Assembly (NCBI GenBank): GCA_947628795.1
Contig: CANRBF010000004.1
Location: 62,001-126,000, forward strand
From: an uncultured Monoglobus sp.
GTDB lineage: Bacteria; Bacillota; Clostridia; Monoglobales; Monoglobaceae
DNA length: 64,000 nucleotides
Direction of reading: 5' to 3'
Positions 778 through 14,315 of this stretch are shown piece by piece. The notes below the pieces were generated by a model. The model was given only the letters and a program-made list of their open reading frames with translations. It ran no database searches and had not been told where the DNA came from. The position numbers and the translations under genes were made by a program. How positions within the stretch are numbered: the stretch's first letter is position 1; the number at the start of each line of letters is the position of its first letter.

Positions 778-807
778 TTGACAAAGTGTGCATAACAGAT
801 GTATAAT
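778..807 (+). promoter_or_regulatory. Sigma-A promoter of the toxin-antitoxin operon
   Basis: A consensus TTGACA (778-783) and TATAAT (802-807) are separated by 18 bases. The antitoxin ATG lies 23 bases downstream of the -10 box, leaving a very short leader. Confidence 0.75.
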
Positions 808-829
808 AGACGTTGAAGGAGATGATATT

Positions 830-1111
830 ATGGCAACTGTCAGCACAAATATTAAAATTGATTCAGTATTAAAGCAGGAATCGCAAAAGTTATTTGAGAG
901 TTTTGGGTTAAGTCTCAGCGCGGCGGTAAATATCTTTCTTCGTCAGGCGGTTCGCGAGCAGGCTATTCCGTTTAGAGTAGGCGCACCTATGCCAAACGAA
1001 GAAACTCTCGAAGCCATTAATGAGGTAAAAAGAATGAAAGAAAATCCAAGTTTTGGCAAGACTTATTCAAGTGTTGAACAAATGATGGAGGAACTGCTTG
1101 CTGATGTATAA
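830..1111 (+). CDS. RelB/DinJ-family antitoxin
   Basis: 93 residues. The ATG at 830 is preceded by AAGGAG with good spacing; an in-frame upstream ATG at 788 lies inside the promoter and is rejected. Residues 1-45 fit the ribbon-helix-helix domain of DinJ antitoxins (a short beta strand, then LSLSAAVNIFLRQAV), and this domain normally dimerises and binds the operon operator. The C-terminal half, rich in Glu and Lys, should wrap the toxin. It overlaps the toxin gene by 8 bases, the usual antitoxin-first order with translational coupling. Autoregulation is expected for the family but no operator was proven here. Confidence 0.88.
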   Translation: MATVSTNIKIDSVLKQESQKLFESFGLSLSAAVNIFLRQAVREQAIPFRVGAPMPNEETLEAINEVKRMKENPSFGKTYSSVEQMMEELLADV

Positions 1112-1376
1112 GATAAAGCCAACCACAAGATTCCAAAAGGATTTAAAGCGCGTAAAGAAACGCGGATTTGATATTTCCTTGTTGACCAATGTGATCAAAA
1201 AACTTGCCAATGGCGAGCAGTTACCCGAAAAAAACAAAGATCATCCGCTTTCCGGTGTCTATTATGGTATGAGAGAATGTCATATTACACCGGATTGGTT
1301 GTTGGTTTATGAAATAGACAATGACAATCTTATTTTATATCTTACAAGAACAGGTTCTCACAGTGATCTGTTTTAA
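1104..1376 (+). CDS. YafQ-family mRNA interferase toxin (RelE superfamily)
   Basis: About 90 residues starting at ATG 1104 inside the end of the antitoxin gene; a TTG at 1098 in the same frame is the alternative start. The sequence shows the YafQ pattern: an N-terminal basic helix (FQKDLKRVKKRG), the HPLSG segment, RECHITPDWLLVYEI in the central beta sheet, and the C-terminal LYLTRTGSHSDLF, which carries the His residues used for ribosome-dependent mRNA cleavage in this family. Length is typical (about 90 residues). It forms a type II toxin-antitoxin pair with the preceding gene. No frameshift or missing key residue is seen, so it is probably functional. Confidence 0.88.
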   Translation: MYKIKPTTRFQKDLKRVKKRGFDISLLTNVIKKLANGEQLPEKNKDHPLSGVYYGMRECHITPDWLLVYEIDNDNLILYLTRTGSHSDLF

Positions 1377-1477: not shown

Positions 1478-1505
1478 ACTTTTTGTAAAATTGCGGCATA
1501 GGATA
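1478..1505 (+). promoter_or_regulatory. Sigma-K-like (mother-cell) promoter candidate
   Basis: AC at 1478-1479, a 17-base spacer, then CATAGGATA (1497-1505) match the AC-N16/17-CATANNNTA pattern known for sigma-K in Bacillus and Clostridium. It sits 54 bases before the start of the DUF11-type gene. This is inference from the motif only. Confidence 0.4.
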
Positions 1506-1558
1506 TTATCGGGCGCGCCAAATGATACAAAATGAGAAATTAAAAGGAGAGATAAAAA

Positions 1559-2416
1559 ATGGCAACCAATCTTCCAAACAGAGCGCAGATATCCTACAGC
1601 GATAACGGCATGCAGGCGACGGCGCTTTCCAATCAGACAAACACCTCGCTTATTGACCAATACACCATGGAAGCGACAAAGACGGCGGTCACGCCCGCGA
1701 TCGTGCCCGGCTCCGCCGCATCGTATATCGTGCGCATTGACAACACCGGCTCGGGAGCGCTTTACAATCCGTCCGTGGTCGACGACCTGGGCGACGCCGA
1801 AAGCGGCTCGCAGCCCCTTATCTACGTGGGCGGCTCGGCGAAGTTCTATTTAAACGGAGACCCGATCAGCGGAACGGCGAACCCCGCCGAAACAAACGTT
1901 ACCTTCTCGGCGACAACCGTTTTGCAGCCCGGCGACAATCTTATCATCGTGTACGCCGCCACGCTCGATCCTTCTCAGAGCGAGGCCGTGACAAACACGA
2001 TCACCGCCACGGCAAACGGCGGAGCGGCGGGCGGTACGGCTGTCACCGCGACAGCCGAAGCGACGATAAATCCTCAGCCCTACGCCAACGTGGCTATCCT
2101 TAAAGCCGCGGATCAGGACAGCGTGGTATCGGGCGACACCCTGACCTACACCTTCACGCTGATAAACAGCGGCACAGGCCCCGCGAACAGCGTGGTGCTG
2201 ACCGATATGCTTCCGAGCGAGTTCACCGTAACGTCGATCTCCTACGACATCGGCAGCGGTTCCGTTACCGCATCGCCGGATGATTACGAGGTTGAGGCTC
2301 CGACCAACACCCTCACGTTCCCCAAGGGCGGAAGCTCCGTCACCCTCAACGTGCCCGCGGCCTCCGAAAACGGCCCCGGAACCATCACGATCGAAGTTAC
2401 CGGAACTATCTCCTAA
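1559..2416 (+). CDS. DUF11-repeat structural protein, possibly spore-associated
   Basis: 285 residues with a strong AGGAG site before ATG 1559. There is no signal peptide and no membrane segment. It consists of two Ig-like DUF11-type modules, at about residues 35-165 (PGSAASYIVRIDNTGSGA, then LVYAA-like strands) and 170-285 (VSGDTLTYTFTLINSGTGPA followed by VVLTDMLPSEF). Composition is rich in Ala, Thr, Gly and Ser, with no Cys. DUF11 modules are usually found in surface or coat proteins. The lack of a secretion signal together with a sigma-K-like promoter suggests assembly onto the forespore from inside the mother cell. That role is inference; an adhesin or other structural role is the alternative. 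Confidence 0.75.
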   Translation: MATNLPNRAQISYSDNGMQATALSNQTNTSLIDQYTMEATKTAVTPAIVPGSAASYIVRIDNTGSGALYNPSVVDDLGDAESGSQPLIYVGGSAKFYLNGDPISGTANPAETNVTFSATTVLQPGDNLIIVYAATLDPSQSEAVTNTITATANGGAAGGTAVTATAEATINPQPYANVAILKAADQDSVVSGDTLTYTFTLINSGTGPANSVVLTDMLPSEFTVTSISYDIGSGSVTASPDDYEVEAPTNTLTFPKGGSSVTLNVPAASENGPGTITIEVTGTIS

Positions 2417-2423
2417 ACCGCAT

Positions 2424-2450
2424 AAAAAGGCGGCCTGCGGCCGCCTTTTT
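2424..2450. terminator. Bidirectional intrinsic terminator
   Basis: A perfect 12-base inverted repeat (A-run plus GGCGGCC / GGCCGCC plus T-run) with a 3-base loop separates the convergent DUF11-type gene and the GT2 gene, and has T-runs in both directions. Confidence 0.9.
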
Positions 2451-2472
2451 GTATGTCGGATTAAATTGCGTT

Positions 2473-3876
2473 TTAATTGAAATCAATGCTTCGGCGCTCG
2501 ATCTCTCCCCAATCGGTTTTCTTTTTGTGGTATCCGATCAGCGACGTCATTCTTACCCACGCCAGGATAAATCTCAGGCACGAAACCTCGATCGCGCACA
2601 GGCCTATCGCCTTTAAGACATCAGTGAAGCTCAGATGCTGGTCTATCGTGTGGATCCTGGCGAAAAACGCCGTCAGTGACAATATTGACGAATACACGAC
2701 GTATATGCCCAAATACAACAGCATAAACGGCACGTTCAAAAAATCAAGCAGCATCGCGACAACCATGGTGACAACGCCGAACACCTCGATGTACGGCGAT
2801 AAAAGCTCGTATATCAAAAAGTACATATATGACACAAAGCTGACGAGCCCGTAGCGCGGATTGCCCAAAATATTTCTGTGAGTCATCATGCTCTGGAACA
2901 AGCCTATATGCCACCTGCGCCGCTGTTTGCTCAAATCGCCGAGCTTTTCAGGGACCTGCGTCCAGCATATGGCGTCGGATGCGTATCGTATGCGATAGGG
3001 CATCATATTTTCTCGGCAGAACACGTGGAGCTTTACCACAAGCTCCATATCCTCGCCCATTGTGTCGGCGTCATAGCCCCCGGCGCTTACGACCGCGCTC
3101 TTTTTGAACAGTCCGAACGCGCCCGAGATCACAATGCTTCCGTTGAATTTGTCAAATAATATTCTCGCCGCCAGAAATGAGCGGTCATACTCAAGCACCT
3201 GCATGCAGGGCAATATTTTGTTCGGCAAACGGTACTTTATCACTCTGCCGTTTTTTATCTCGGCCCCGTTGCACGGGCGTACCGCGCCGCCCACGGCTAT
3301 CACGTTGTCGTCCTCCAGCACGGGGCGCACGATTTTTCTGAGCGAGTCGTACTGCAGCACCGAGTCGGCGTCTATGCTGAGAAAATACGGATACTTGCTC
3401 GCGTTTATGCCCGCGTTGAGCGCGTCCGCCTTGCCTCCGTTTTGCTTTCGAATCAGAGTGAGCGGTATATTGTCGATCTCGGTCTCATATATTTCTTTCG
3501 CGGGTTTTGTCATGATCTGCCGCTGTATAGGCCGATTGGATCTTTTCATGTCAAACGCGTCAAGGACGGCCTTTGCGGTATTATCTTTTGAGCCGTCGTC
3601 AACCACTATTATCTCATACAATCTGTAGTCCTGCATCAGCAGCGACTTGATGGTCGAAACAATGGTCTCGGCCTCGTTATACGCAGGCACAATTATCGAG
3701 ACGGGCACGTAGTAATCGTTAAGTATCTCATTTTTCAGCGTGTTTCGGCGTTTTATGCTGTACAGCGATGTCGAGCCGACAATTACCGCCAGAAACAAAA
3801 AGCTGGCGTATCCTATCATATAGAGGACAAAGAATATTCCCACAAAGTTGAAAAACACCTGCAATATATCTCTCAT
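2473..3876 (-). CDS. Processive family-2 glycosyltransferase (exopolysaccharide synthase-like)
   Basis: 467 residues. An N-terminal membrane helix (about 7-33) precedes a GT-A catalytic domain with the family signatures: VSIIVPAYNEAE, VVDDGS (nucleotide-binding Asp), SIDADS (the metal-binding DxD-like site), MGED (the catalytic-base region) and QRRRW, the Q(x)xRW motif of processive beta-glycosyltransferases such as cellulose, hyaluronan and poly-N-acetylglucosamine synthases. Several C-terminal helices (about 340-440) would form the export channel. The start codon overlaps the stop of the HEAT-repeat gene as TAATG. It is the last gene of the six-gene operon and probably makes and exports the polymer. 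Sugar and linkage cannot be read from the sequence; no PilZ domain is seen. Confidence 0.85.
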   Translation of the reverse strand: MRDILQVFFNFVGIFFVLYMIGYASFLFLAVIVGSTSLYSIKRRNTLKNEILNDYYVPVSIIVPAYNEAETIVSTIKSLLMQDYRLYEIIVVDDGSKDNTAKAVLDAFDMKRSNRPIQRQIMTKPAKEIYETEIDNIPLTLIRKQNGGKADALNAGINASKYPYFLSIDADSVLQYDSLRKIVRPVLEDDNVIAVGGAVRPCNGAEIKNGRVIKYRLPNKILPCMQVLEYDRSFLAARILFDKFNGSIVISGAFGLFKKSAVVSAGGYDADTMGEDMELVVKLHVFCRENMMPYRIRYASDAICWTQVPEKLGDLSKQRRRWHIGLFQSMMTHRNILGNPRYGLVSFVSYMYFLIYELLSPYIEVFGVVTMVVAMLLDFLNVPFMLLYLGIYVVYSSILSLTAFFARIHTIDQHLSFTDVLKAIGLCAIEVSCLRFILAWVRMTSLIGYHKKKTDWGEIERRSIDFN

Positions 3877-5018
3877 TATACAGCCGCCTCCGCCAATTTA
3901 TTACCTGTTTTTGTATCTTCCTCTTCTCGCGCGTCCGCATCTTCCGCGCCGAGACGATAAGCCAGCATTTCTTTGGCATATCTGTCTCCTCCGACTATAT
4001 GCTCGATATCCGAATACTCAACGCCCTTCGTCTCAAGGCTCACAGCCGCGTTATAACGGACATGCCAGTTGGGGCTGAGCATCGCGTCGGTCAGGACCTT
4101 TATCACGTCATCGCCGTCATAAGACGCCAGAGCCGTGACGCCGATAGCCGCGTATTCCCAGTGCACCGGGTCGGTATCCGAGCCGAACTCCAGGAGCTTT
4201 TCCCTCGCGGGCTCATACGGATATTTGGCAAAATATCTGACAGCCGCCAGCCTCATCTCCTTGCCGCGGTCCTCGTCGAGCATGATGTCAAGCATTTTCT
4301 GTTGATACTCGCCGTTTTCAAATCGTATGTAGTTGAGTATCGCGACGCGGGTCTCCTCGCTGAAATCGTCGAATCGGCTCCAAAGCATATTTATCAGCTC
4401 ATGATGATCACCCTCGAACATAAGCAGTCCGTCCTGCAATATCTTATCGTGCAGAAAGGCTCCGTTTCGATCGCTGCGGCTCACCGCGTCAACGACAGCT
4501 TGAGCGCTGCCGAACGAGTACAGCGCGTGCATGGTGTTGACTCTGCAATACAAACTGTCCTTTTCCATATAGTCGATCAGAATTCTTTGCAGATCATCGG
4601 CGGGAACATGATCTTTAAGCTTTTTGCTCCCGATAAAATACGCGAAATACGCCGCCTGCAAATTCTCGCGCTTACTATAGATATAAGCGAGCTCGACAAA
4701 CACGGGCGCCAGCTCGTTTAAATACTCGCCCGCCGCGGTTTTTTCAACGCTGTCAAAATGCTTGTCGAGAGCCGCGTCGAACGCCATAAGCCCGCTCGTT
4801 TTGGACAGCACGCGCGTCATGTGCTTTATATGCTCATCGGTCACCCGAACGCCGCGCCTGATCTTGTTCAGCTCATCGGTTATTATTTTATCATAACGCG
4901 CGACGCGCAATTTCATTCTCTCGTCGCTGCCGCGCATAACGATATTGTAAACTATGTTAAACGCTATCATACTGAGGCAAACAAAGCCGTATATGTAAAG
5001 CAGCGCTTCACTGCCCAT
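3876..5018 (-). CDS. Membrane-anchored HEAT-repeat protein
   Basis: 380 residues. A hydrophobic N-terminal helix (about 4-28) is followed by a basic stretch and then alpha-helical repeats with HEAT character, clearest in the second half (for example RLAAVRYFAKYPYEPAREKLLEF and HVRYNAAVSLETKG). No catalytic motif is evident. It lies between the glycosidase-like gene, overlapped by 11 bases, and the GT2 gene, overlapped by 1 base, so tight translational coupling is likely. I infer a scaffold for the membrane polysaccharide synthase on the cytoplasmic face, but orientation and partners are not shown by the sequence. Its acidic C-terminus (EEEDTK region) is probably disordered. Confidence 0.75.
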   Translation of the reverse strand: MGSEALLYIYGFVCLSMIAFNIVYNIVMRGSDERMKLRVARYDKIITDELNKIRRGVRVTDEHIKHMTRVLSKTSGLMAFDAALDKHFDSVEKTAAGEYLNELAPVFVELAYIYSKRENLQAAYFAYFIGSKKLKDHVPADDLQRILIDYMEKDSLYCRVNTMHALYSFGSAQAVVDAVSRSDRNGAFLHDKILQDGLLMFEGDHHELINMLWSRFDDFSEETRVAILNYIRFENGEYQQKMLDIMLDEDRGKEMRLAAVRYFAKYPYEPAREKLLEFGSDTDPVHWEYAAIGVTALASYDGDDVIKVLTDAMLSPNWHVRYNAAVSLETKGVEYSDIEHIVGGDRYAKEMLAYRLGAEDADAREEEDTKTGNKLAEAAV

Positions 5019-7308
5019 CAGCGTCCACCTCCATTTTTTGTTCTTCCGCTGGGCTTTCCTGCTCCGTGTTCCAAAAATCCTTCAGCATATAATAGGACTT
5101 TTTAAATCTCTCGTGGGTCTTGACGGTCTTATACCACGGTTCAAGCTCGATCTCGCCGGTTGACACGGGCGCGCTTTTGTCGGCCGACGCTCCAACGCTC
5201 ATTTTGTCTATGTTCAGATTCTCGATGCCGTAATGCTCGTAGTAGTCGTCGTGTATCATCATCTCGGACGGATTGCTGAAATTCAGCAGCTGCCACGGTA
5301 TGCGTATCTCAACGGCGTTTTCGCCGAACGCGAAGTCGGCCAGAGAATCATAGCTGTCCGAGTCGGGATTCGCGTTTCCCAATCTCAGCCGCCCGGTATC
5401 CGACTTCTTGCCCGTGGGCTGCGTGTTGGCTCTGTCGCGGATATACTCCTGCATGGTTATCGGCAGGTATATGTCAACAAACTTTGAACTGTCGCGGGCG
5501 GGCGGATCCGAATAAGGGATCTCGCCGTAATATGTGTCGCCGTAGATCACTTTTAGCACCTCGTACCTCTCGTTGACAACAACTCGGCTGTCGTCCGCGC
5601 CGTGTATGACCATCAAAAAATCGCACGGCTTGTCAAACGAGACATCGTAGTTCTCACAGTAAGCGCTGCCGCTTTTTGGCGTGGTGTCGATAGGTATATA
5701 CAAGGTGTCGTCACCGGGTTTGAGGCCGTCTCCGCGAACGAGAAAATATATGAACTTCTCGTCATACTTGACATACAGCTCGGTCCCGTTATTGATCGCG
5801 ACCGGGTCATCGCCTTCCCACTCTGAAATATCTCCGTCCGCGTAGCACACGCTTTTTTGTTTTCCGGGGTCAAAGGTCAGAACGCCGAAAAACTGCTCGT
5901 TTGTCTGATAGTCGCTCCAGTACGGAGTTTTATCGAGATCGACCGCGTGCATCGTGTTCCAGTTCCTTTTGAACCACTCGTCCTGCCAGGTGAAAAGGCA
6001 GCTTCCAGCGCAGCCCGCATTCATTATGTCGCTGTAGCAGTCGATCAGGCCTTGGCCCTGCTCCGCCTCGGACATATATCCCTGAGTGCGGCCGACGCTG
6101 TCGCCCTCCTGAGACAGACCGCGGCCGGTCGCCAGGCCGTACTCGGCTATAACCACCGGCATCGTGTGATATGAGGTGAGCGCCTTTAAGTACGCCAGAT
6201 AGGTGTTGTATCTGCCGTATGAGTCTATATAGCTCTCATCGCTCACATAGTCCTCGATACGCGGACCCTTGAGCTTTGACGTGCGGTACTTGACGGTGGC
6301 CCAGCGAGTGCTGCCCAGACGCTCGCTGATTTCGGCGTCACTGTATTGACTCGTGTCGCGCATAACGTTTAAATAATCAGGGAAATACGAATAAACATGG
6401 TATGAGGCGAACATTCCCGAAATAAAATTCTCGGTGTTTGGCTTTATATGCTCAACGTCGACCGACGCCACCTTCTGGCGCGCGAAAACAACGCTCGGCG
6501 GGTATACAAACGGGTCGGTGTTTGCCCAGTTGGCGAACGCAACCAGTCTCTGCTGCTTGTAGCGCTCCGACTCATACTCCACCGCTTTGTCGCCTACTTC
6601 CGCAAGGAACGCCTCAAAGGGCGCCGCGTCCTCGGTGGTGCCGAAATATTTTCCGCTGTACCGAGCGCGGCCCTCGTTTTTCTGATTGGTGTACGTGACC
6701 GTGTACTGTTCCCAGTCGACGCCCAGGATGTAACCGATGACCCACGGGCTCACATCCTTGCGGAAGCTTCCGTTTCCCTTGTTTCCGTAGCTCAGCGCCA
6801 GGCTCTTTTTGCCGTGGATAACGTCGATCATGGTGCGGCAGTCGTCGGAAAACGTCGTCATGATGTCCGCGTCGAACGCGTCCATATGCGAGAACATGTC
6901 ATAGTCGCTTATCCAGACGCCCTGCAAAAGATAGAGCGGCTTATCGTTATACTTATTGTACTCGTAAAACGCGTTGTAAAAATCATCATTGAGGATCGTG
7001 TACACGCGCACCGTGTTGGCGCCCATATCCTGAATTTGTTTGAACCATCTCAGATATGTTTTTTTGTCTATGGCAAAATCACTGGGCCACTCCCCCGGTA
7101 TTCCGGGCTCCAGATCCACGCCCCGTATCTCAAAGGGAACATACTCTCCGTCTTTTTCCATATAGATATTTTTCTCGTCGGTTTTCATGAAGGTCGAAAC
7201 CGGCTCATCGGGGTGAAGGTCTATGTATATTCCCAAGCGGTAATAGGCGGTGTTCCATATAAACGCCGCCACTATGAAAATACCGACGGCAATAAGATAT
7301 TTTTTCAC
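5008..7308 (-). CDS. Membrane-anchored glycoside hydrolase-like protein with CBM9-like C-terminal domain
   Basis: 766 residues with one N-terminal membrane anchor (about 4-22). The central part (about 55-460) looks like a clan GH-A TIM barrel as in GH2 and GH5 relatives: EIRGVDLEPG, MGANTVRVYTILND, WVIGYILGVDWEQ (possible acid/base Glu) and VVIAEYGLATG, whose Glu fits the GH-A nucleophile strand. The C-terminal part (about 490-720) begins DGDISEWEGDDP and continues with a beta-sandwich pattern like CBM9/DOMON domains. It is encoded inside the exopolysaccharide operon, so a polymer-trimming or polymer-remodelling hydrolase is the best guess. Exact family and substrate are unknown, and whether both catalytic Glu residues are in place needs a structural model. 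Confidence 0.7.
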   Translation of the reverse strand: MKKYLIAVGIFIVAAFIWNTAYYRLGIYIDLHPDEPVSTFMKTDEKNIYMEKDGEYVPFEIRGVDLEPGIPGEWPSDFAIDKKTYLRWFKQIQDMGANTVRVYTILNDDFYNAFYEYNKYNDKPLYLLQGVWISDYDMFSHMDAFDADIMTTFSDDCRTMIDVIHGKKSLALSYGNKGNGSFRKDVSPWVIGYILGVDWEQYTVTYTNQKNEGRARYSGKYFGTTEDAAPFEAFLAEVGDKAVEYESERYKQQRLVAFANWANTDPFVYPPSVVFARQKVASVDVEHIKPNTENFISGMFASYHVYSYFPDYLNVMRDTSQYSDAEISERLGSTRWATVKYRTSKLKGPRIEDYVSDESYIDSYGRYNTYLAYLKALTSYHTMPVVIAEYGLATGRGLSQEGDSVGRTQGYMSEAEQGQGLIDCYSDIMNAGCAGSCLFTWQDEWFKRNWNTMHAVDLDKTPYWSDYQTNEQFFGVLTFDPGKQKSVCYADGDISEWEGDDPVAINNGTELYVKYDEKFIYFLVRGDGLKPGDDTLYIPIDTTPKSGSAYCENYDVSFDKPCDFLMVIHGADDSRVVVNERYEVLKVIYGDTYYGEIPYSDPPARDSSKFVDIYLPITMQEYIRDRANTQPTGKKSDTGRLRLGNANPDSDSYDSLADFAFGENAVEIRIPWQLLNFSNPSEMMIHDDYYEHYGIENLNIDKMSVGASADKSAPVSTGEIELEPWYKTVKTHERFKKSYYMLKDFWNTEQESPAEEQKMEVDADGQ

Positions 7309-7342
7309 GCGGCTCCTCCTTCCGCTACCTAAATCAAAGTCG

Positions 7343-8839
7343 TTACGGGTTCCATCTCTTGGTGTTGGACGGGTGCCCGAAGAATCTCAGCACGTCTATG
7401 TTCTGATCGAGCCACGCGCCTCTTTCGGTCAGCCAGCCCTTGAGAACTCCGACCGCCTGCTCCGGCGTGTACTGATTGCGGTTGACGACCTCCGCGCCGT
7501 CCGTCTCAAGGCTAAGCATGTCGGTGTCAAAGGCGTTTTTCCAGCGGTCGTAGTTTCTCGCGACCGCGGGGCCCAGCCAGGCGTTCGCCTCATCGATGTA
7601 GTTCGTTATATTTTGGTCGCTGAGATATGTTTTTCGCAGCTCTTTGTATCTTTCGATCACCTTTTCGCAGAATGCCTCGTCCTTAAACAGCATGTTGTAA
7701 TATCCGCTCTCGGCCACGAAAAATCCCGCTCGGCCGTATATATCGTTGGGGAAGTTGTTGCAGGCGTTGTTAAAATCCCAAACGCACATCTTGTATTTGT
7801 CGCCGGGCTCCTTATAAAGATACGTCGAAAAGTTGCCCACATCGGCGTTGCTAGTGAACTCGTTTATTATATAATAATCAATAAAATTGTCAACGTCGAT
7901 CCAGTTTTGGTAGCCGTAGTTCTCGTTGTCGTAGTCATAAGAATATATGGATTTCTCAAACTTTGAAAAATCCAGTTCTATCTCTTTCGCGAGAGAAGGT
8001 GTGAGCTTGGTCTTTCCAGGATAGCGCACAGCCACGTCGCCTCCGGTGATCTGGAGCCGTTCGCTCAAAACGTTTATGTCTCTGGTGGTCTCAAGATCCG
8101 CCTCAACGGGACGGTCGACGCGCAGCAGATAGCCCGTGAACGTCTCGCCCTTGACGATAGTTTTGAGCTCAAGTCTGCAGTTCTCGCCCTCTGATATGGT
8201 CTCGGTCATCAGATAAACGCCTCTGTAGTCGCCGTTTAAAAACACCTCGCAGAAACGCACGTTCGGCGAGTACTCCATGATGTCGCCCGACAGGTTGTAC
8301 CACAGATAATTCCTCAAAAGGGTCTTGTCGAGGTACGGACCGCTGAGCGCCCACTCGTGGTGCGGCGCCATGCCCATGACCGAGATCTCGCGATCGGCGC
8401 CGCTCTCGTCGATAAACTTCATCAGATACGGCGCTTTTTCGAACCTGCGCGACGAGTGTCCGCGGACCCTGAACAGCGATTCGGTAGTGAAATCCGGCTC
8501 GTCGCTTAAATGGTTGTTGCCGCTTTCGTTGTCGATCACCGATATGTTAACTTTGGCGTAATCGGTGCCGTCGTCCGCCTTTGTGTAGACGCTCTCGTCG
8601 AATATGTCAAATTCTCCGCTCTCTACTCCGGGCACCGCGCTGCCCTTTGTATCAATTATCACAAGAGGCAGGTGGGAGCAGAAAACATCATCGCCGTGCG
8701 TGGAGCACGGCGCGTATCCCGGTTCTTCGCGATGCTGATGATAGCGGTAAACCGGATCGTCCTTGCCGACATTCGCCGCGATACAGGCGGCCAATATAAC
8801 GACCGCAGCCGCGGCGATACCGATAATTTTATATTTCAT
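7343..8839 (-). CDS. CotH-family kinase-like lipoprotein
   Basis: 498 residues. The N-terminus ends in a lipobox-like LAAC, with Cys at about residue 19, so the mature protein is probably a lipoprotein. CotH family features follow: RVRGHSSRRFEKAPYLMKF (ATP-binding Lys/Arg region), YLWYNLSG, FCEVFLNGDYRGVYLMTE, YLLRVDRP, and NWIDVDNFIDYYIINEF followed by YKMCVWDFNNAC, the segment with metal-binding Asp. CotH proteins are atypical kinases that phosphorylate spore coat proteins in Bacillus. The extracellular placement and operon context here suggest a role in cell-surface polymer modification or attachment. The start is preceded by an AAGG-rich site. Confidence 0.85.
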   Translation of the reverse strand: MKYKIIGIAAAAVVILAACIAANVGKDDPVYRYHQHREEPGYAPCSTHGDDVFCSHLPLVIIDTKGSAVPGVESGEFDIFDESVYTKADDGTDYAKVNISVIDNESGNNHLSDEPDFTTESLFRVRGHSSRRFEKAPYLMKFIDESGADREISVMGMAPHHEWALSGPYLDKTLLRNYLWYNLSGDIMEYSPNVRFCEVFLNGDYRGVYLMTETISEGENCRLELKTIVKGETFTGYLLRVDRPVEADLETTRDINVLSERLQITGGDVAVRYPGKTKLTPSLAKEIELDFSKFEKSIYSYDYDNENYGYQNWIDVDNFIDYYIINEFTSNADVGNFSTYLYKEPGDKYKMCVWDFNNACNNFPNDIYGRAGFFVAESGYYNMLFKDEAFCEKVIERYKELRKTYLSDQNITNYIDEANAWLGPAVARNYDRWKNAFDTDMLSLETDGAEVVNRNQYTPEQAVGVLKGWLTERGAWLDQNIDVLRFFGHPSNTKRWNP

Positions 8840-8897
8840 ATTATGCCTTATCCTTTCACTGCCTTGAATTTATAAGGCGCGCATAATGAATGTCTTT

Positions 8898-9575
8898 CTA
8901 GCTGCTGATCTCGTCGTTTTGCATGACGGTATTAAAATATTCTATACCGCCGAGAGCGTATATTTCATCGCTCACGCTGCCGCCCGTTCTTTCGCCCTTT
9001 TCAAGATTTTTCCTGCTTATCTCATAGATCAGCTCGACGGTATCGTCAGTGGTGTTTCTGACTCTCAAATTGGCCTTGCGCATATAACGCTTGAATATAA
9101 GCGCCGCTATTTTTTCCTCATTGGCGCGCGCCGCTCTTATTATTATCAAAATGCGGTTGTCGTTTTTGATGCGTCCGAAAACAAGCAGCAGAATAAACGC
9201 GAACGCACTTCCTATGCCCGCCACAAGATAGTCGCCCGCGCCGCAGCATATGCCCACAACGACCGTCCAGAATATGTAGACCGTGTCGCGGGAATCCTTG
9301 ATCGCCGTCCTGAAACGAACGATGGACAGCGCGCCGACCATACCGAGCGACAGAGCTATGTTATTTCCTATTACTATCATGACCGTGGTGGTGACTATAG
9401 TCAGCGCCACAAGCGAGACGTTGAACTTTTTGCTGTATATGCTTCCGTCGTGGGATAATTTGTACGACAGAAATATGAAGCACGCGATGATCGACGCCGC
9501 CGCAAGGCGCAAAACGATCATCTGAGCGGTCAATTCGCCGCCCGACTCAAGGGTCTGCAACAGATATTCTCTCAT
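8898..9575 (-). CDS. DUF4956 membrane protein
   Basis: 225 residues with about four membrane helices (roughly 22-40, 53-72, 76-95 and 101-130), then a cytoplasmic alpha/beta domain with an RILIIIRAARA strand. The hallmark is the conserved SLGMVGALSIVRFRTAIKD segment of DUF4956. In my recollection of this family, it is commonly next to VTC-domain and CotH genes, exactly as here, but I know of no demonstrated biochemical activity. It lies 18 bases downstream of the VTC gene and 58 bases upstream of the CotH gene, all in one direction. Confidence 0.85.
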   Translation of the reverse strand: MREYLLQTLESGGELTAQMIVLRLAAASIIACFIFLSYKLSHDGSIYSKKFNVSLVALTIVTTTVMIVIGNNIALSLGMVGALSIVRFRTAIKDSRDTVYIFWTVVVGICCGAGDYLVAGIGSAFAFILLLVFGRIKNDNRILIIIRAARANEEKIAALIFKRYMRKANLRVRNTTDDTVELIYEISRKNLEKGERTGGSVSDEIYALGGIEYFNTVMQNDEISS

Positions 9576-9593
9576 AATGTTAGTCCTCCTGTA

Positions 9594-10280
9594 TTAATTC
9601 ATTGTCGCGAGCCGCGCCAGACAATATTTGCTGACCGACATTTCCGAGCAGTTGACCGCGCTCACCATGTTTTTTATATAGCCCAGCAGAAATCCGTTGT
9701 ACTTGACTTCAAGAACCGAGTTATAAGGGTCGAGCGCGGGATAGAGCGGCAGACGCTCCGAAAATATGTCAAAGCACGCCTCGCTGCCCGTTATCTCGGA
9801 GTCGATAGTGACTCGTATCTTATTCTCTTTGGCGATGTAGGCTCTGCGCGAATACTCCACAACGGCCTTGGGTCTATAGCACAGCCGATTCATAAGGCCG
9901 TAGCACTCGGCCGCGAAAGGCTCTCTGTATTTGAGCAGCGGGCCGTAGCGCCCTCTTGTAAGCTCCTCGGCGTCGGCTCTGGTTATCCTGAGCGAGCGCT
10001 TTTTTTGGTACGCCCCCTCCTTTTGCTTCATCTCAAGCATTCCGAAGTCGGAATTCGGGTCGTATATCCTGAGCCGTATTTTTCTGCGCAGCTCCAGACC
10101 GTCGACCTTGCCGTAGTAATCCAGGTCAGCGGGCGTGTCAAAATACAGCGAGCGTATCTTATAACCGCGCGGCCCGTTGTGAGGGTCAAGCATCATTATT
10201 TTTTCAAGCCGTCCCCGCAGCGCGGCCTCGGCGGACGCGTTAAGCAGAAACTTTTTTTCCTGCCTCAGTACCTCGTTCAA
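9594..10280 (-). CDS. VTC-domain (polyphosphate polymerase-like) protein
   Basis: About 228 residues from a TTG at 10278-10280 with a GGGAG site 8 bases upstream. The frame is open to 10400, but that would place translation at the transcription start inside a structured leader, so the shorter form is chosen. The VTC tunnel signatures are present: LRQEKKFLL, KIRSLYFDT, LRRKIRLRIYD (basic substrate-binding residues), LEMKQKEG (the catalytic-tunnel Lys and Glu pattern), KAVVEYSRRAY, RVTIDSEI and SVLEVKYNG (the terminal Glu and Lys). The family comprises ATP-driven polyphosphate polymerases and other triphosphate-tunnel enzymes. It is the first gene of the six-gene operon. Whether it makes polyphosphate or senses a polyphosphate or nucleotide is unknown. 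Confidence 0.85.
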   Translation of the reverse strand: MNEVLRQEKKFLLNASAEAALRGRLEKIMMLDPHNGPRGYKIRSLYFDTPADLDYYGKVDGLELRRKIRLRIYDPNSDFGMLEMKQKEGAYQKKRSLRITRADAEELTRGRYGPLLKYREPFAAECYGLMNRLCYRPKAVVEYSRRAYIAKENKIRVTIDSEITGSEACFDIFSERLPLYPALDPYNSVLEVKYNGFLLGYIKNMVSAVNCSEMSVSKYCLARLATMN

Positions 10281-10304
10281 AATCTGTTCACTCCCATACA
10301 AAAA

Positions 10305-10378
10305 CCCCGCAAAAAACAACACTCTCCGGTGCCCGCGCATTATTAAACAATACGCGCGCTTTACGTGTTTAAGCGGGG
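10305..10378 (-). promoter_or_regulatory. Structured leader RNA of the exopolysaccharide operon (attenuator or riboswitch candidate)
   Basis: The roughly 120-nt leader between promoter and VTC start folds into nested helices on the minus strand. CCCCGC (10373-10378) pairs with GCGGGG (10305-10310), AACAC (10365-10369) with GUGUU (10318-10322), and an inner hairpin spans 10334-10358 with CGCGC/GCGCG arms. The outer 3' arm is followed by a U-run, giving terminator-like shape. It does not match the c-di-GMP-I, purine, preQ1 or fluoride riboswitch consensus that I can recall. Ligand and regulatory role are unknown. Confidence 0.45.
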
Positions 10379-10406
10379 ATGTATTAACTCTTTGCCTCAA
10401 TTATTC

Positions 10407-10435
10407 AGTATAATGAGCCTATCTTGATTTGTCAA
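10407..10435 (-). promoter_or_regulatory. Sigma-A promoter of the six-gene exopolysaccharide operon
   Basis: On the minus strand TTGACA (10430-10435), a 17-base spacer and TATACT (10407-10412) form a near-consensus promoter. Predicted transcription start is near 10400. Confidence 0.8.
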
Positions 10436-10541
10436 GGCAAATTGCCGCTTTTCTTGCAAATTGCACAATATAAGAACAGAAAATCATATTTAAATTCTTA
10501 ATTTTAACGCTGAACCTATTTTAAATTTTTCTGTTTGTGCA

Positions 10542-10579
10542 CAAAATCGGCAGACCTTTTTTTCGGCCCGCCGATTTTG
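10542..10579 (-). terminator. Inverted repeat after the pectate lyase gene
   Basis: A perfect 10-base inverted repeat, CAAAATCGGC (10542-10551) with GCCGATTTTG (10570-10579), lies about 20 bases past the stop codon of the pectate lyase gene. The loop is long (18 bases) and the T-run after the stem is poor, so it may be a stabilising or weak terminator structure. Confidence 0.5.
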
Positions 10580-10600
10580 ATCGTTTTGCTTTATTTTACA

Positions 10601-13600
10601 TTATTTTACATTTGTATACGGCTGCAGATTTCCGCTGCTCCAGAGATAGAACTTGACGTCGGTGTAGTCCTTGTCAAACGTCATGTCGCTGACGATATAC
10701 TCCGAATCCGACATGGGTATCTCCGCGATCTTCGCGTCCGCCAGAACGCCGTTTTCGTAGGCCGCGGCTATAAACATGGCGCCGCTCTGCTCGCCGACGT
10801 TCTTTATCGACGCCTTGACCGCCCTGCCGTCCATAACGGGCTCGCTGACATAGAACACCTTGTCGCTCAAAAATTCCTTTTCAAGCCTCATGTTGGCAAA
10901 GTATGTGGGGTCGGCGGTCTTTACCAGACGTATCGAGCGCAGGGTCGTGTCTCTGCCCTCAATGCTGCCGATGGTCGTCTCGCCGAGAACAGTGCCGTCC
11001 TTCTTAGAGGCGGTCATTGTGATAAACCCGTCGGTTCCCGCTTTTGAGTAATCTATCTTGGTGTCAAAGTGTACCCAGCCGCTGCCGCCTAACTGATCGT
11101 ACGTTATAAACGGATTGGCTCTGTCGTCAAGAGCGGGTCCCTTGTTGATCTGATCGTTCGCGTTATTGATTATTTCGGCGAACACGTTTTCGCCGTTCTG
11201 CCAGTTGCCCGCCTTGTTCTCGAAATAAACCCTGAAGCTGCGCGCCACGTCTTTATCCACATACACGTCGAAGTCAAAGTCCACAACTCCGTCGCTGTAG
11301 GGCTGCGCGAGCTCGCGGTACACGTTGAAGGTCTCGACATAGAGGGCGGGCTCGCCGTCTTTATAAACGACGCTGTTGGTGCTCAGCGCTCCGTTCTCGG
11401 TGGAGGCGCCGTCCTGCCATACGTCGTACTGCGCGGCGGTACCCGGGTCGACAGTGGGCGCCGGAGTGCCCGTGGGCTCGGGAGTAGGCAGACCCGCGAA
11501 GTTGGACTTGTTGTCAAGCTTCAGATCGCTGAAGCTCGCCATCGAGTAGTACGCCTTGGGAGACGCGTCAGACTGACCCTGATGCGAGTCAATGGCGACG
11601 CCGACATACATCGTTTCGGGAAGGCCCTTGATGTTCATGATATATGGCTGTCTGATATTGTCGGTGTAGCTCTCGCCTCCGTTTGAAACCGAGAACACCA
11701 GGTTATCGCCGTCACGCTGGATCCTGAGATAATTCGGAAGCTCGTGGGCCTCGCCGGGCAGCCAGTTGTAGCCTTTTTTGTTTCCGTCGTTATACTCGCC
11801 CAGAACATTCGCCGAGATAACGCCGCCGTTTTTATCCTTAAAGAATATGCCAGTTTTCATATCGGTCGAGTTGGTCTCGTCGGGGTCGGTCGCCAGCGCG
11901 CCGCCCTTTGTGGTCCTTGCGACGATCCTGGGATTTCTGCCGAGCTTTATCCAGCCGTCCACCAAAGCCGCCGATACCGAGTTGGCATCCAGAGTACTGC
12001 GGACCATAAGACCCATGACGGGGCCGTTCTCATTGCCCATCATATCTTCCATCTTGATCGAGATATCGAAGTTGCCCGTTACCTGCTTGTACATAAAGGC
12101 GCAGCTGTCAGCCTTTCCGCCGATCTTTCCGCTGCCGCCGATCGTGTAGATCCCGTTTGCGTCGACCGAGGCCGCGCCGTTTCCGTATCCGGGCGAGCCG
12201 ATCTTTGCCATCTGCCAGCCCTCGGGGGTGCTGCTTCCGTTTACGTACACGATCGAGGTGGTGCTGCGTGTGCTTTCGCCAGCGTCGTTATACGCCATGC
12301 AGGACAGATAATGCTCGCCGATATCGAGAGATATCGAGTCGTCTATCGCCGAGGCGCCCGGATATTCCCTGATCATGTTCGGGCCGTCCCACAATTCCAT
12401 TTTGGTTACAGTCGTATTTCCCACGGGTGACGCCTGTGCCTTGTAAGCCACGGTCTGCGTGTCGTTTATGACCGTCCACCTTCCGTTGTTGACGGTCGTG
12501 TCGCCAACCTTGCCGTTAACCGAGGCGATCGCGGGCGATGTGACAACTATCTCCGGATTGGTCGGCAGCGTCGCGCTCTGCTCAGCCGTCCAATCGTTGA
12601 CATAGGCCTCTATCCATGTGTAGCCCGCTTTTTCGCCCTCTTGTATAATATCCTCGTCCTTCGCGGTTCCCATGTTGTTCGCGGTCTTCCAATCCGCGGG
12701 GATCTCAAAGGGCTTTTCGACTTTTTCAAATCCGCTGATGCCGCCGACCTCATCGGAGTTGTTGATTATCCTGCCTGTTCTGTTTTTCGCGTCGGCTATT
12801 ATTCTGGCGTCGGTCGCGTCGCGCTTGGGCAGCGTGGCTCCGATACCGGGCAGTATCGCGTCCTTGACCTCGGCGCCCGGGATAACCTCGCTGACGTTCA
12901 GGTCGGGATAAAGCTCATCTCCGAGCGAGAACGGCTCGCTCATTCTTTCGACCTGGTCCGCGGCGTTATTTACAGCTTTGCCCAGCCAGTTGTTCTCTGT
13001 CACATCGGAACAATTATCCACATAGTTGTTCTCCATATAGAATTGACTCTTGTATGTAACGCCGTCAACCGTTTTTGCCAGATCTTTAAAATCATAAATC
13101 CTCGGCTTTCTGTCCTCGCGGGTGCTGGGGCCGAAGCTGTAATAGTTGTTGGCATAGTTGATCTTTGAGGGATTGAGCACCTGATTGTGAGGCGAGGTCG
13201 GCTCGCCGCCGTAGGCCGAGTTGGTAACGCCCCAGTTGTAGACCATATTGTTTTGAATATCGGTCTTTTGCAGCACGCGGTCAAGTCTGGGCGAGCGGCT
13301 GTCGTGATGGGCGAACAGATTGCGGTAGTAGGTCGCGTTGGTGCCGCCCAGGATTCCGCCGTAGCCGTGAGCGCCCTTGAAGTGGCCCGAAAGCCTCATG
13401 CTCTCGGCCGCTATCGTGTCCTGAACGGTAAGGCGCTGACCTTGTTTGTATGTGGCGTTCTCGGCACTGCCGGCATAAAGCGTCAGGCCCTCATCCACAA
13501 ACCAGCTGGTTGAGCAGTGGTCTATGATAACGTCTTGGTTCCACTGGCCGCCGATTCCGTCATACTCGCCGCCGTTCTTGTTGGTGGGGCGGACGCGCAT

Positions 13601-14191
13601 ATAGCGGATCATAACGTTCTTTCTGCCGTTGCCTATTCTGAGATCTCCGCCCGTCAGAGTAACGCCGTCTCCGGGTGCGGTCTGGCCGAGCAGAGTGATG
13701 TTGTTTCGATTAATATAGAGCGTGTCGGGCACCTCGATAATGCCGCCCACGTCAAAGACAACTATCCTGCCGACCGTCTCGGAATCGTCGCCGGTCGTCA
13801 CGCCGTCGCCCACAGCGTCGGCAAGCGTTCCGGGGCCGTCAGCGTCAAGTTTCGTTACGTGGTACACCTCGACGGTTCCGCCGTTATCCAAAGCGGCTCT
13901 TGCGCCCTTGGTGTATTTTCCTCCGCCCTCGGCGCCCGGGAAAGCGGGCAGCGGATTAGGCACTGCGGTAGGGATCGGCTCCTGCGAAGGCGCCGCGCTT
14001 TCCGCGGGATCTTCCTCGCCCTCGGCGCCCGGGGAAGCGGACGACGGGTTAGGCACCGCGGTAGGATCGGGCTCCTGCGAAGGCGCCGCGCTTTCCGCGG
14101 GATTTTCCTCGCCCTCGGCAAAAATCGGGCATATCGAAAATACGGAAAACGCCACGCATAATACCAAAATATAAGACAATAATTTTTTCAT
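10601..14191 (-). CDS. Secreted multidomain pectate lyase (PL1-like)
   Basis: 1196 residues from ATG 14191, preceded by GAGCGAGG; an upstream in-frame start is less likely. Residues 1-25 are a signal peptide (cleavage near PIFA). Residues 26-95 are an acidic Pro/Glu/Ala/Ser linker made of two 31-residue repeats. The lyase domain (about 95-500) begins PAFPGAEGGGKYTKGARA and carries the parallel beta-helix signatures of PL1 pectate lyases: LDADGPGTLADAV, VVFDVGGIIEV, ITLLGQTAPGDGV, VMIRYMRVRP and VIIDHCSTSW. Downstream are an Ig-like domain (about 545-650), a concanavalin-like domain (about 660-890), a Pro-rich linker, and a further beta-sandwich region (about 915-1196), probably carbohydrate-binding. 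It should cleave polygalacturonate by beta-elimination outside the cell. No sortase signal or S-layer domain is seen, so it may be released. It is monocistronic, with its own promoter. Confidence 0.88.
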   Translation of the reverse strand: MKKLLSYILVLCVAFSVFSICPIFAEGEENPAESAAPSQEPDPTAVPNPSSASPGAEGEEDPAESAAPSQEPIPTAVPNPLPAFPGAEGGGKYTKGARAALDNGGTVEVYHVTKLDADGPGTLADAVGDGVTTGDDSETVGRIVVFDVGGIIEVPDTLYINRNNITLLGQTAPGDGVTLTGGDLRIGNGRKNVMIRYMRVRPTNKNGGEYDGIGGQWNQDVIIDHCSTSWFVDEGLTLYAGSAENATYKQGQRLTVQDTIAAESMRLSGHFKGAHGYGGILGGTNATYYRNLFAHHDSRSPRLDRVLQKTDIQNNMVYNWGVTNSAYGGEPTSPHNQVLNPSKINYANNYYSFGPSTREDRKPRIYDFKDLAKTVDGVTYKSQFYMENNYVDNCSDVTENNWLGKAVNNAADQVERMSEPFSLGDELYPDLNVSEVIPGAEVKDAILPGIGATLPKRDATDARIIADAKNRTGRIINNSDEVGGISGFEKVEKPFEIPADWKTANNMGTAKDEDIIQEGEKAGYTWIEAYVNDWTAEQSATLPTNPEIVVTSPAIASVNGKVGDTTVNNGRWTVINDTQTVAYKAQASPVGNTTVTKMELWDGPNMIREYPGASAIDDSISLDIGEHYLSCMAYNDAGESTRSTTSIVYVNGSSTPEGWQMAKIGSPGYGNGAASVDANGIYTIGGSGKIGGKADSCAFMYKQVTGNFDISIKMEDMMGNENGPVMGLMVRSTLDANSVSAALVDGWIKLGRNPRIVARTTKGGALATDPDETNSTDMKTGIFFKDKNGGVISANVLGEYNDGNKKGYNWLPGEAHELPNYLRIQRDGDNLVFSVSNGGESYTDNIRQPYIMNIKGLPETMYVGVAIDSHQGQSDASPKAYYSMASFSDLKLDNKSNFAGLPTPEPTGTPAPTVDPGTAAQYDVWQDGASTENGALSTNSVVYKDGEPALYVETFNVYRELAQPYSDGVVDFDFDVYVDKDVARSFRVYFENKAGNWQNGENVFAEIINNANDQINKGPALDDRANPFITYDQLGGSGWVHFDTKIDYSKAGTDGFITMTASKKDGTVLGETTIGSIEGRDTTLRSIRLVKTADPTYFANMRLEKEFLSDKVFYVSEPVMDGRAVKASIKNVGEQSGAMFIAAAYENGVLADAKIAEIPMSDSEYIVSDMTFDKDYTDVKFYLWSSGNLQPYTNVK
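13926..14111. repeat. Two 93-bp tandem repeats in the pectate lyase linker
   Basis: Two adjacent 93-bp units (13926-14018 and 14019-14111) differ at a modest number of positions, and a third unit begins at 14112. They encode two 31-residue Pro/Glu/Ala/Ser linker repeats and keep the reading frame, which suggests recent slippage or unequal exchange. Confidence 0.75.
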
Positions 14192-14232
14192 GATCCTCGC
14201 TCCAATCATTAATTTTTTGTTCTTTAATACAA

Positions 14233-14261
14233 ATTATAACACATTTATCCGCCCAATGCAA
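14233..14261 (-). promoter_or_regulatory. Sigma-A promoter of the pectate lyase gene
   Basis: Minus-strand TTGCAT (14256-14261), a 17-base spacer and TATAAT (14233-14238), 42 bases before the chosen ATG. Confidence 0.7.
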
Positions 14262-14275
14262 CAAAAAGTTAAAAG

Positions 14276-14303
14276 AAAACCGCCGGCGGTGCCGACGGTT
14301 TTT
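14276..14303. terminator. Bidirectional intrinsic terminator after hydA
   Basis: AAAACCGCCGGC / GCCGACGGTTTT with a 3-base loop (one mismatch) and T-runs on both sides, about 12 bases past the hydA stop codon. Confidence 0.85.
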
Positions 14304-14315
14304 GTATGCCGTAAT

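What the first reader, a model, noticed from the sequence alone, without database searches (positions are those of the whole stretch)
2473..10435. Six-gene operon VTC - DUF4956 - CotH - glycosidase-like - HEAT - processive GT2
One promoter drives six tightly spaced genes joining a polyphosphate polymerase-like tunnel enzyme, an uncharacterised membrane protein, a lipobox-bearing atypical kinase, a membrane-anchored hydrolase and a synthase with the complete QxxRW motif. Each family is known on its own, and I recall that the VTC, DUF4956 and CotH trio recurs in Firmicutes. I know of no established function for the whole set. It reads like a surface-polymer machine in which phosphate transfer (VTC, CotH) modifies or regulates a glycan made by GT2.
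Basis: partly seen in the sequence, partly recalled or inferred. Interest (0 to 1): 0.68.

Follow-up and report, generated by a model that had tools for sequence, protein, structure and literature searches.

The report
Widespread surface-polysaccharide operon with phosphate enzymes
Six neighbouring genes in this gut bacterium form a gene set found in the same order in dozens of other gut bacteria, and described in Clostridium perfringens without a known function, that most likely builds and trims an extracellular sugar polymer, with an attached phosphate-handling module whose exact job nobody has shown.

Summary
The six genes are real, intact and in the stated order: VTC, DUF4956, CotH, a glycosidase-like protein, HEAT, processive GT2. 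The organism is a Monoglobus relative. The set is not an oddity: 65 of 80 homologous loci have exactly this order, and 60 of 63 with enough flanking sequence have all six. The same order and similar protein sizes were tabulated in 2010 as part of C. perfringens NELoc-2, function unknown.

New here: (1) VTC and DUF4956 are a near-obligate pair (118 of 121 DUF4956 loci). (2) CotH occurs almost only in genomes with that pair (74 of 79, against 24 of 117 without CotH). (3) The glycosidase-HEAT-GT2 core can stand without the trio, and the trio also sits beside Pel operons. (4) The uncharacterised protein is a clan GH-A barrel nearest GH157. (5) An EAL (c-di-GMP) gene follows GT2 in 50 of 60 loci, though not in Monoglobus. 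(6) Polysaccharide deacetylases were inserted at several positions.

Best reading: a c-di-GMP-linked, synthase-dependent exopolysaccharide operon, probably an N-acetylhexosamine polymer, with a VTC-DUF4956-CotH phosphate module. Phosphorylation of the glycan is not shown; a polyphosphate-fed extracellular kinase is speculative.

The parts
9594..10280 (-). VTC-domain protein (polyphosphate-polymerase-like tunnel enzyme), 228 aa, TTG start
   Evidence: Pfam VTC 1.3e-38; PDB Vtc4 E 1.8e-10; K10, R69, R71, K85, R145, R156, E191, K218 invariant in 43 sequences; start from SD and family N-terminus
8898..9575 (-). DUF4956 membrane protein, 225 aa: transmembrane helices plus a ferredoxin/ACT-like C-terminal domain, MgtC-like
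   Evidence: Pfam DUF4956 6.2e-13, MgtC 1.6e-4; model pLDDT 75.6; nearest solved fold is the MgtC C-terminal domain, weak, E 2.9e-3
7343..8839 (-). CotH-family kinase with N-terminal signal/anchor, 498 aa
   Evidence: Pfam CotH 1.8e-58; PDB 5jd9 E 3.1e-6; K135, E198, D355 invariant, D333 in 42 of 43
5008..7308 (-). Gene 4: membrane-anchored clan GH-A barrel plus C-terminal beta domain, 766 aa, GTG start
   Evidence: No Pfam/NCBIfam hit; profile hit LaGH157 9e-5; fold hit LaGH157 9.3e-12; E389 invariant, residue 198 is Asp here
3876..5018 (-). HEAT-repeat protein with one N-terminal transmembrane segment, 380 aa
   Evidence: Pfam HEAT_2 7.8e-8; hydrophobic N-terminus in 78 of 78 orthologues
2473..3876 (-). 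Processive GT2 synthase, 467 aa; DDG 93, DAD 169, GED 274, QRRRW 318
   Evidence: Pfam GT2 1.5e-28; best NCBIfam PgaC/IcaA 1e-46, below its cut-off; motifs conserved
10407..10435 (-). Sigma-A-type promoter TTGACA-17-TATACT
   Evidence: 11 of 12 consensus positions; identical in two sister Monoglobus genomes
10281..10400 (-). About 120-nt 5' leader with a conserved GC-rich inverted repeat
   Evidence: Alignment of three genomes; no Rfam match
10542..10579 (-). Intrinsic terminator of the upstream pectate-lyase-like gene
   Evidence: 15-bp stem, -27.4 kcal/mol, z -6.4

Best explanation
This is a synthase-dependent exopolysaccharide operon made of two modules. Core module: the GT2 synthase polymerises a beta-linked sugar and threads it through its own membrane channel; the HEAT protein is its cytoplasmic scaffold; the anchored GH-A protein trims or releases the chain outside. 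The polymer is probably an N-acetylhexosamine polymer, partly deacetylated in lineages that added a deacetylase, and in most relatives a c-di-GMP phosphodiesterase/receptor gene is in the same cluster. Accessory module: VTC and DUF4956 form one membrane complex that handles polyphosphate, and CotH is an extracytoplasmic kinase that depends on it. Shown: order, conservation, intact active sites, pairing, co-occurrence, separability, GH-A fold, EAL and deacetylase neighbours. Inferred: polymer chemistry, HEAT role, DUF4956 as channel, and what CotH phosphorylates.
For: 65 of 80 loci in exact order, 60 of 63 complete. In a census of 196 genomes drawn evenly over the class, 14 have gene 4: 11 have VTC, DUF4956 and CotH adjacent, one is cut by a contig end, two have divergent gene 4 without the trio. 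Synthase motifs conserved. GH-A fold nearest GH157. EAL-domain gene downstream of GT2 in 50 of 60 loci (Pfam EAL 1e-60). Polysaccharide deacetylases between VTC and DUF4956 (L072, L115), DUF4956 and CotH (L095, L097), gene 4 and HEAT (L090), or just upstream (L059). Core without trio in L113 and L114, in L114 with the order rearranged. VTC-DUF4956 pairing 118 of 121. CotH with DUF4956 in 74 of 79 genomes, against 24 of 117, Fisher p 4e-26, not corrected for phylogeny. Trio adjacent to PelF in 4 of 10 PelF loci, agreeing with PMC7112168.
Against: The GT2 scores far below the PgaC cut-off and gene 4 resembles beta-1,3-glucan enzymes, so the sugar is unsettled. Deacetylases are in only six loci. 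Monoglobus lacks the adjacent EAL gene and the deacetylase. 38 of 53 trio loci are near neither gene 4 nor PelF, so the trio is not specific to exopolysaccharide. No biochemical data.
Confidence: 0.68

Rival explanations
1. The polymer is a beta-1,3-glucan (curdlan-like); gene 4 is a GH157-type endo-beta-1,3-glucanase or transglycosylase that edits it.
For: Best fold and profile matches are LaGH157, solved with laminari-oligosaccharides, and further down Gel4, a beta-1,3-glucanosyltransferase.
Against: About 10% identity, and many GH-A folds score near. Deacetylases inserted in several loci imply N-acetyl groups; the nearest GT2 profile is PgaC/IcaA.
Confidence: 0.22
2. VTC-DUF4956 makes and threads polyphosphate out of the cell, and extracytoplasmic CotH uses it in place of ATP to phosphorylate the polymer or surface proteins.
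For: VTC has the full Vtc4-type active site; near-obligate pairing with a membrane protein carrying invariant R87 and R89; CotH is extracytoplasmic and co-occurs with the pair; B. subtilis has CotH without VTC and DUF4956, and its CotH works on spore coat proteins (PMC7821199).
Against: CotH with a signal sequence exists in genomes without the pair (G142, G176, G040); known CotH uses ATP in vitro; DUF4956 resembles MgtC, which is not a polyphosphate channel; no literature found.
Confidence: 0.15
3. The VTC-DUF4956-CotH genes are signalling parts: CotH phosphorylates a surface or coat protein that controls the synthase (or the spore coat), and the phosphate enzymes do not touch the glycan.
For: CotH is a protein kinase in B. 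subtilis (PMC7821199); regulation of Pel by CotH was suggested for streptococci (PMC7112168); the trio often stands alone.
Against: No substrate known; it does not explain why VTC and DUF4956 accompany CotH; CotH here is outside the membrane, whereas GT2 and HEAT have their soluble parts inside.
Confidence: 0.3

Closest known systems
Clostridium perfringens NELoc-2 (CP4_0460-0468), PMC2879425
   Same: VTC, 'tubulin/FtsZ' protein (226 and 222 aa, in the DUF4956 slot), CotH 497 aa, hypothetical 685 aa, HEAT 377 aa, GT2 466 aa in the same order
   Different: VTC and the DUF4956-slot gene are duplicated around a resolvase; preceded by a sigma factor; a deacetylase is reported in the locus.
Accessory genes of Gram-positive Pel operons (cotH, PPP, DUF4956, DUF4832), PMC7112168
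   Same: VTC-type polymerase, DUF4956 and CotH beside an exopolysaccharide synthesis cluster, plus a further uncharacterised accessory gene
   Different: The synthase there is PelF/PelG; here it is a GT2 with HEAT and a GH-A barrel
PgaC/IcaA-type processive GT2 synthases (TIGR03937)
   Same: Best NCBIfam match, processive synthase with QxxRW
   Different: 159.7 bits against a cut-off of 422.3; HEAT partner instead of PgaD/IcaD
Yeast Vtc4 polyphosphate polymerase
   Same: VTC tunnel domain with the catalytic residues kept
   Different: No SPX domain and no fused transmembrane part; the membrane partner is DUF4956
GH157 endo-beta-1,3-glucanase (LaGH157)
   Same: GH-A barrel, nucleophile region aligned, best match by profile and fold
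   Different: About 10% identity; membrane anchor and C-terminal beta domain; always next to a synthase

Membership tests
NELoc-2-type six-gene cluster | Six genes in the same order and with similar lengths | tested here: met
   Table; order and length only
NELoc-2-type six-gene cluster | Sequence orthology with the C. perfringens genes | not tested
VTC polyphosphate polymerase | VTC domain with Lys/Arg/Glu active site | tested here: met
VTC polyphosphate polymerase | Makes polyphosphate | not testable with these tools
   Needs enzyme assay
CotH kinase | CotH fold with conserved Lys and two Asp | tested here: met
   D333 is Glu in 1 of 43
CotH kinase | Kinase activity | not testable with these tools
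   Needs enzyme assay
Processive GT2 synthase | D, DxD, ED and QxxRW motifs plus transmembrane helices | tested here: met
PNAG synthase PgaC/IcaA | Score above the family cut-off | tested here: not met
   159.7 bits against 422.3
GH157 | Clear membership by sequence | tested here: inconclusive
   Profile E 9e-5 over about 115 columns only, fold E 9.3e-12, about 10% identity
Pel system | PelF/PelG in the cluster | tested here: not met
   No PelF or PelG in the operon; the genome has no PelF match over the cut-off
MgtC family (for DUF4956) | MgtC domain over the curated cut-off | tested here: not met
   22.4 bits against 31.4; weak C-terminal fold match

The most novel reading that the evidence does not exclude
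VTC-DUF4956 is a bacterial polyphosphate synthase-translocase that threads polyphosphate out of the cell, and extracytoplasmic CotH enzymes use that polyphosphate instead of ATP to phosphorylate surface polymers or proteins: an extracellular, polyphosphate-powered phosphorylation system.
Probability: 0.15. Interest if true: 0.85.

Novelty: new member of a known kind. Interest (0 to 1): 0.52.

Why it matters
It turns a list of unexplained genes, recurring across gut Clostridia and matching a disease-associated C. perfringens locus annotated as 'tubulin' and 'chitin synthase', into a concrete and testable polysaccharide system. The near-obligate VTC-DUF4956 pair and the dependence of CotH on it raise an open question, how kinases outside the membrane get phosphate, and give a two-gene unit on which to test it.

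Tried and rejected
Strict prediction that CotH without VTC-DUF4956 should lack a signal sequence: failed; CotH in G142, G176 and G040 has one. Rfam leader or riboswitch in 1500-14500: none above gathering score. G062 'CotH' hit dropped: its open frame reads like a transposase fragment. PelF matches at loose E-values dropped as generic glycosyltransferases; only cut-off matches kept. CotH lipobox as a family trait: 3 of 75. DUF4956 whole-fold match: none at E below 0.001. Literature on CotH with polyphosphate and exopolysaccharide: no paper in the open library. First promoter alignment used wrong coordinates, redone. A first VTC query in the wrong frame, redone.

Full report
Observation. The six genes lie on the minus strand, intact, between 10280 and 2473, with ribosome-binding sites and overlaps typical of one transcript. 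Pfam identifies five of them; the 766-aa protein (gene 4) matches nothing in Pfam or NCBIfam. The VTC start should move from 10400 to TTG 10280. A terminator and a sigma-A-type promoter conserved in two sister genomes isolate the operon from the pectate-lyase-like gene upstream. A better consensus match inside cotH means that a single promoter is not proven. The window's genome is close to Monoglobus MAGs (L027 and L028, 94-95% identity of gene 4).

Neighbourhood. A scan of bacterial genomes with gene 4 found 559 relatives; the best 80 loci were kept. Of these, 65 have exactly VTC-DUF4956-CotH-gene 4-HEAT-GT2, and 60 of 63 with room on both sides have all six. Because that sample was centred on gene 4, I also used 196 genomes drawn evenly over the class. 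There DUF4956 has 121 loci, 118 with VTC on the same strand within 500 bp, VTC upstream in 117. Gene 4 occurs in 14 genomes: 11 have the trio adjacent, one is cut by a contig end, and two (G174, G192) have divergent gene 4 without the trio. In those two, gene 4, HEAT and GT2 remain together, in G192 in a different order and with two copies of gene 4; no trio gene was found beside gene 4 in L077 either. So the cluster is a core (gene 4, HEAT, GT2) plus a module (VTC, DUF4956, CotH). The module lies next to PelF in 4 of 10 PelF loci of the sample, as published for Pel (PMC7112168). It is near neither core in 38 of 53 trio loci.

CotH and the pair. CotH genomes carry DUF4956 in 74 of 79 cases, genomes without CotH in 24 of 117; relatedness is not corrected for. 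Among the control genomes, B. subtilis has CotH without VTC or DUF4956. CotH in the class is extracytoplasmic: 35 of 40 sampled proteins pass a simple hydrophobicity test, one of the other five shows a visible signal peptide, and the remaining four appear cut short in the stretch fetched or at a contig end. The prediction that CotH without the pair would lack a signal failed in three genomes, so the dependence is strong but not absolute, and its reason is not established.

Active sites. VTC keeps K10, R69, R71, K85, R145, R156, E191 and K218 in all 43 sequences, including a 23%-identical paralogue; these fit the known Vtc4 site (the Vtc4 residue numbers are from memory, and the last two positions lie beyond the printed alignment). 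CotH keeps K135, E198 and D355 in all and D333 in 42 of 43; the two Asp are inferred to match D228 and D251 of B. subtilis CotH (D228Q is inactive: PMC7821199; D251 from memory). GT2 keeps its DDG, DAD, GED and QRRRW motifs.

Gene 4. AlphaFold gives a fairly confident barrel with a C-terminal beta domain (pLDDT 82.7). By sequence profile (9e-5) and fold (9.3e-12) its nearest solved relative is LaGH157; the residue mutated in the LaGH157 E224A structure aligns with E389. The acid/base is uncertain: position 198 matches the GH-A motif by my own reading, is Glu in 41 of 42 aligned proteins, and is Asp only in the window and its two sister genomes.

Polymer and control. An EAL protein with a degenerate GGDEF domain and a solute-binding-like N-terminus follows GT2 in 50 of 60 loci; Monoglobus lacks it there but has three GGDEF proteins elsewhere. 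Polysaccharide deacetylases sit at four different positions in or beside the operon in six loci, and one is reported in NELoc-2 (PMC11677781). Together with the PgaC-like profile hit this favours an N-acetylhexosamine polymer over a beta-1,3-glucan, without settling it.

Known or new. The gene order was tabulated in C. perfringens NELoc-2 in 2010 (PMC2879425), a locus common in isolates from birds with necrotic enteritis (PMC5504799); the papers read give no function for it. I therefore call this a new member of a known kind. What is added is the two-module anatomy, the near-obligate pair, the CotH dependence, the GH-A assignment and the c-di-GMP and deacetylase links.

Mechanism. Shown: anatomy, conservation, intact residues, pairing, neighbours. 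Inferred: GT2 polymerises and exports; HEAT scaffolds it in the cytoplasm; gene 4 edits the chain outside; VTC-DUF4956 handles polyphosphate at the membrane; CotH acts outside and depends on the pair. What CotH phosphorylates, and from which donor, is open.

Noticed in passing
L107:8169-9654 (G000:C9), next to L107:6117-8144: A second VTC-DUF4956 pair in the same genome, without CotH, adjacent to a Cthe_2159 (carbohydrate-binding) protein; similar high-scoring DUF4956 matches recur in most genomes of the genus.
   Followed up: partly
window 5008-7308, residue 198: Asp at the putative acid/base position in the window and two sister Monoglobus genomes, where the other aligned orthologues have Glu.
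   Followed up: partly
window 7866-7893: Perfect TTGACA-16-TATAAT on the minus strand inside cotH; could be an internal promoter or a codon accident.
   Followed up: no
window 788-1376: RelB-type antitoxin and YafQ-type toxin pair (Pfam).
   Followed up: no
window 10601-14209: 1202-aa pectate-lyase-like secreted protein upstream (PelZ profile 7e-29, below its cut-off), conserved in the sister genomes.
   Followed up: no
window 1559-2416: DUF11/B_ant_repeat protein convergent with the operon end.
   Followed up: no
L064:14676-15230 and relatives: A small coiled-coil-like protein directly downstream of GT2 in 24 loci, no Pfam match.
   Followed up: partly
L096:16654-17556 and relatives: A roughly 300-aa signal-bearing protein near the operon in 17 loci, no Pfam match.
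   Followed up: partly
L113:3741-8986: In G174 a glutamine-synthetase-like gene and a response-regulator-domain gene flank gene 4 in the core-only cluster.
   Followed up: no
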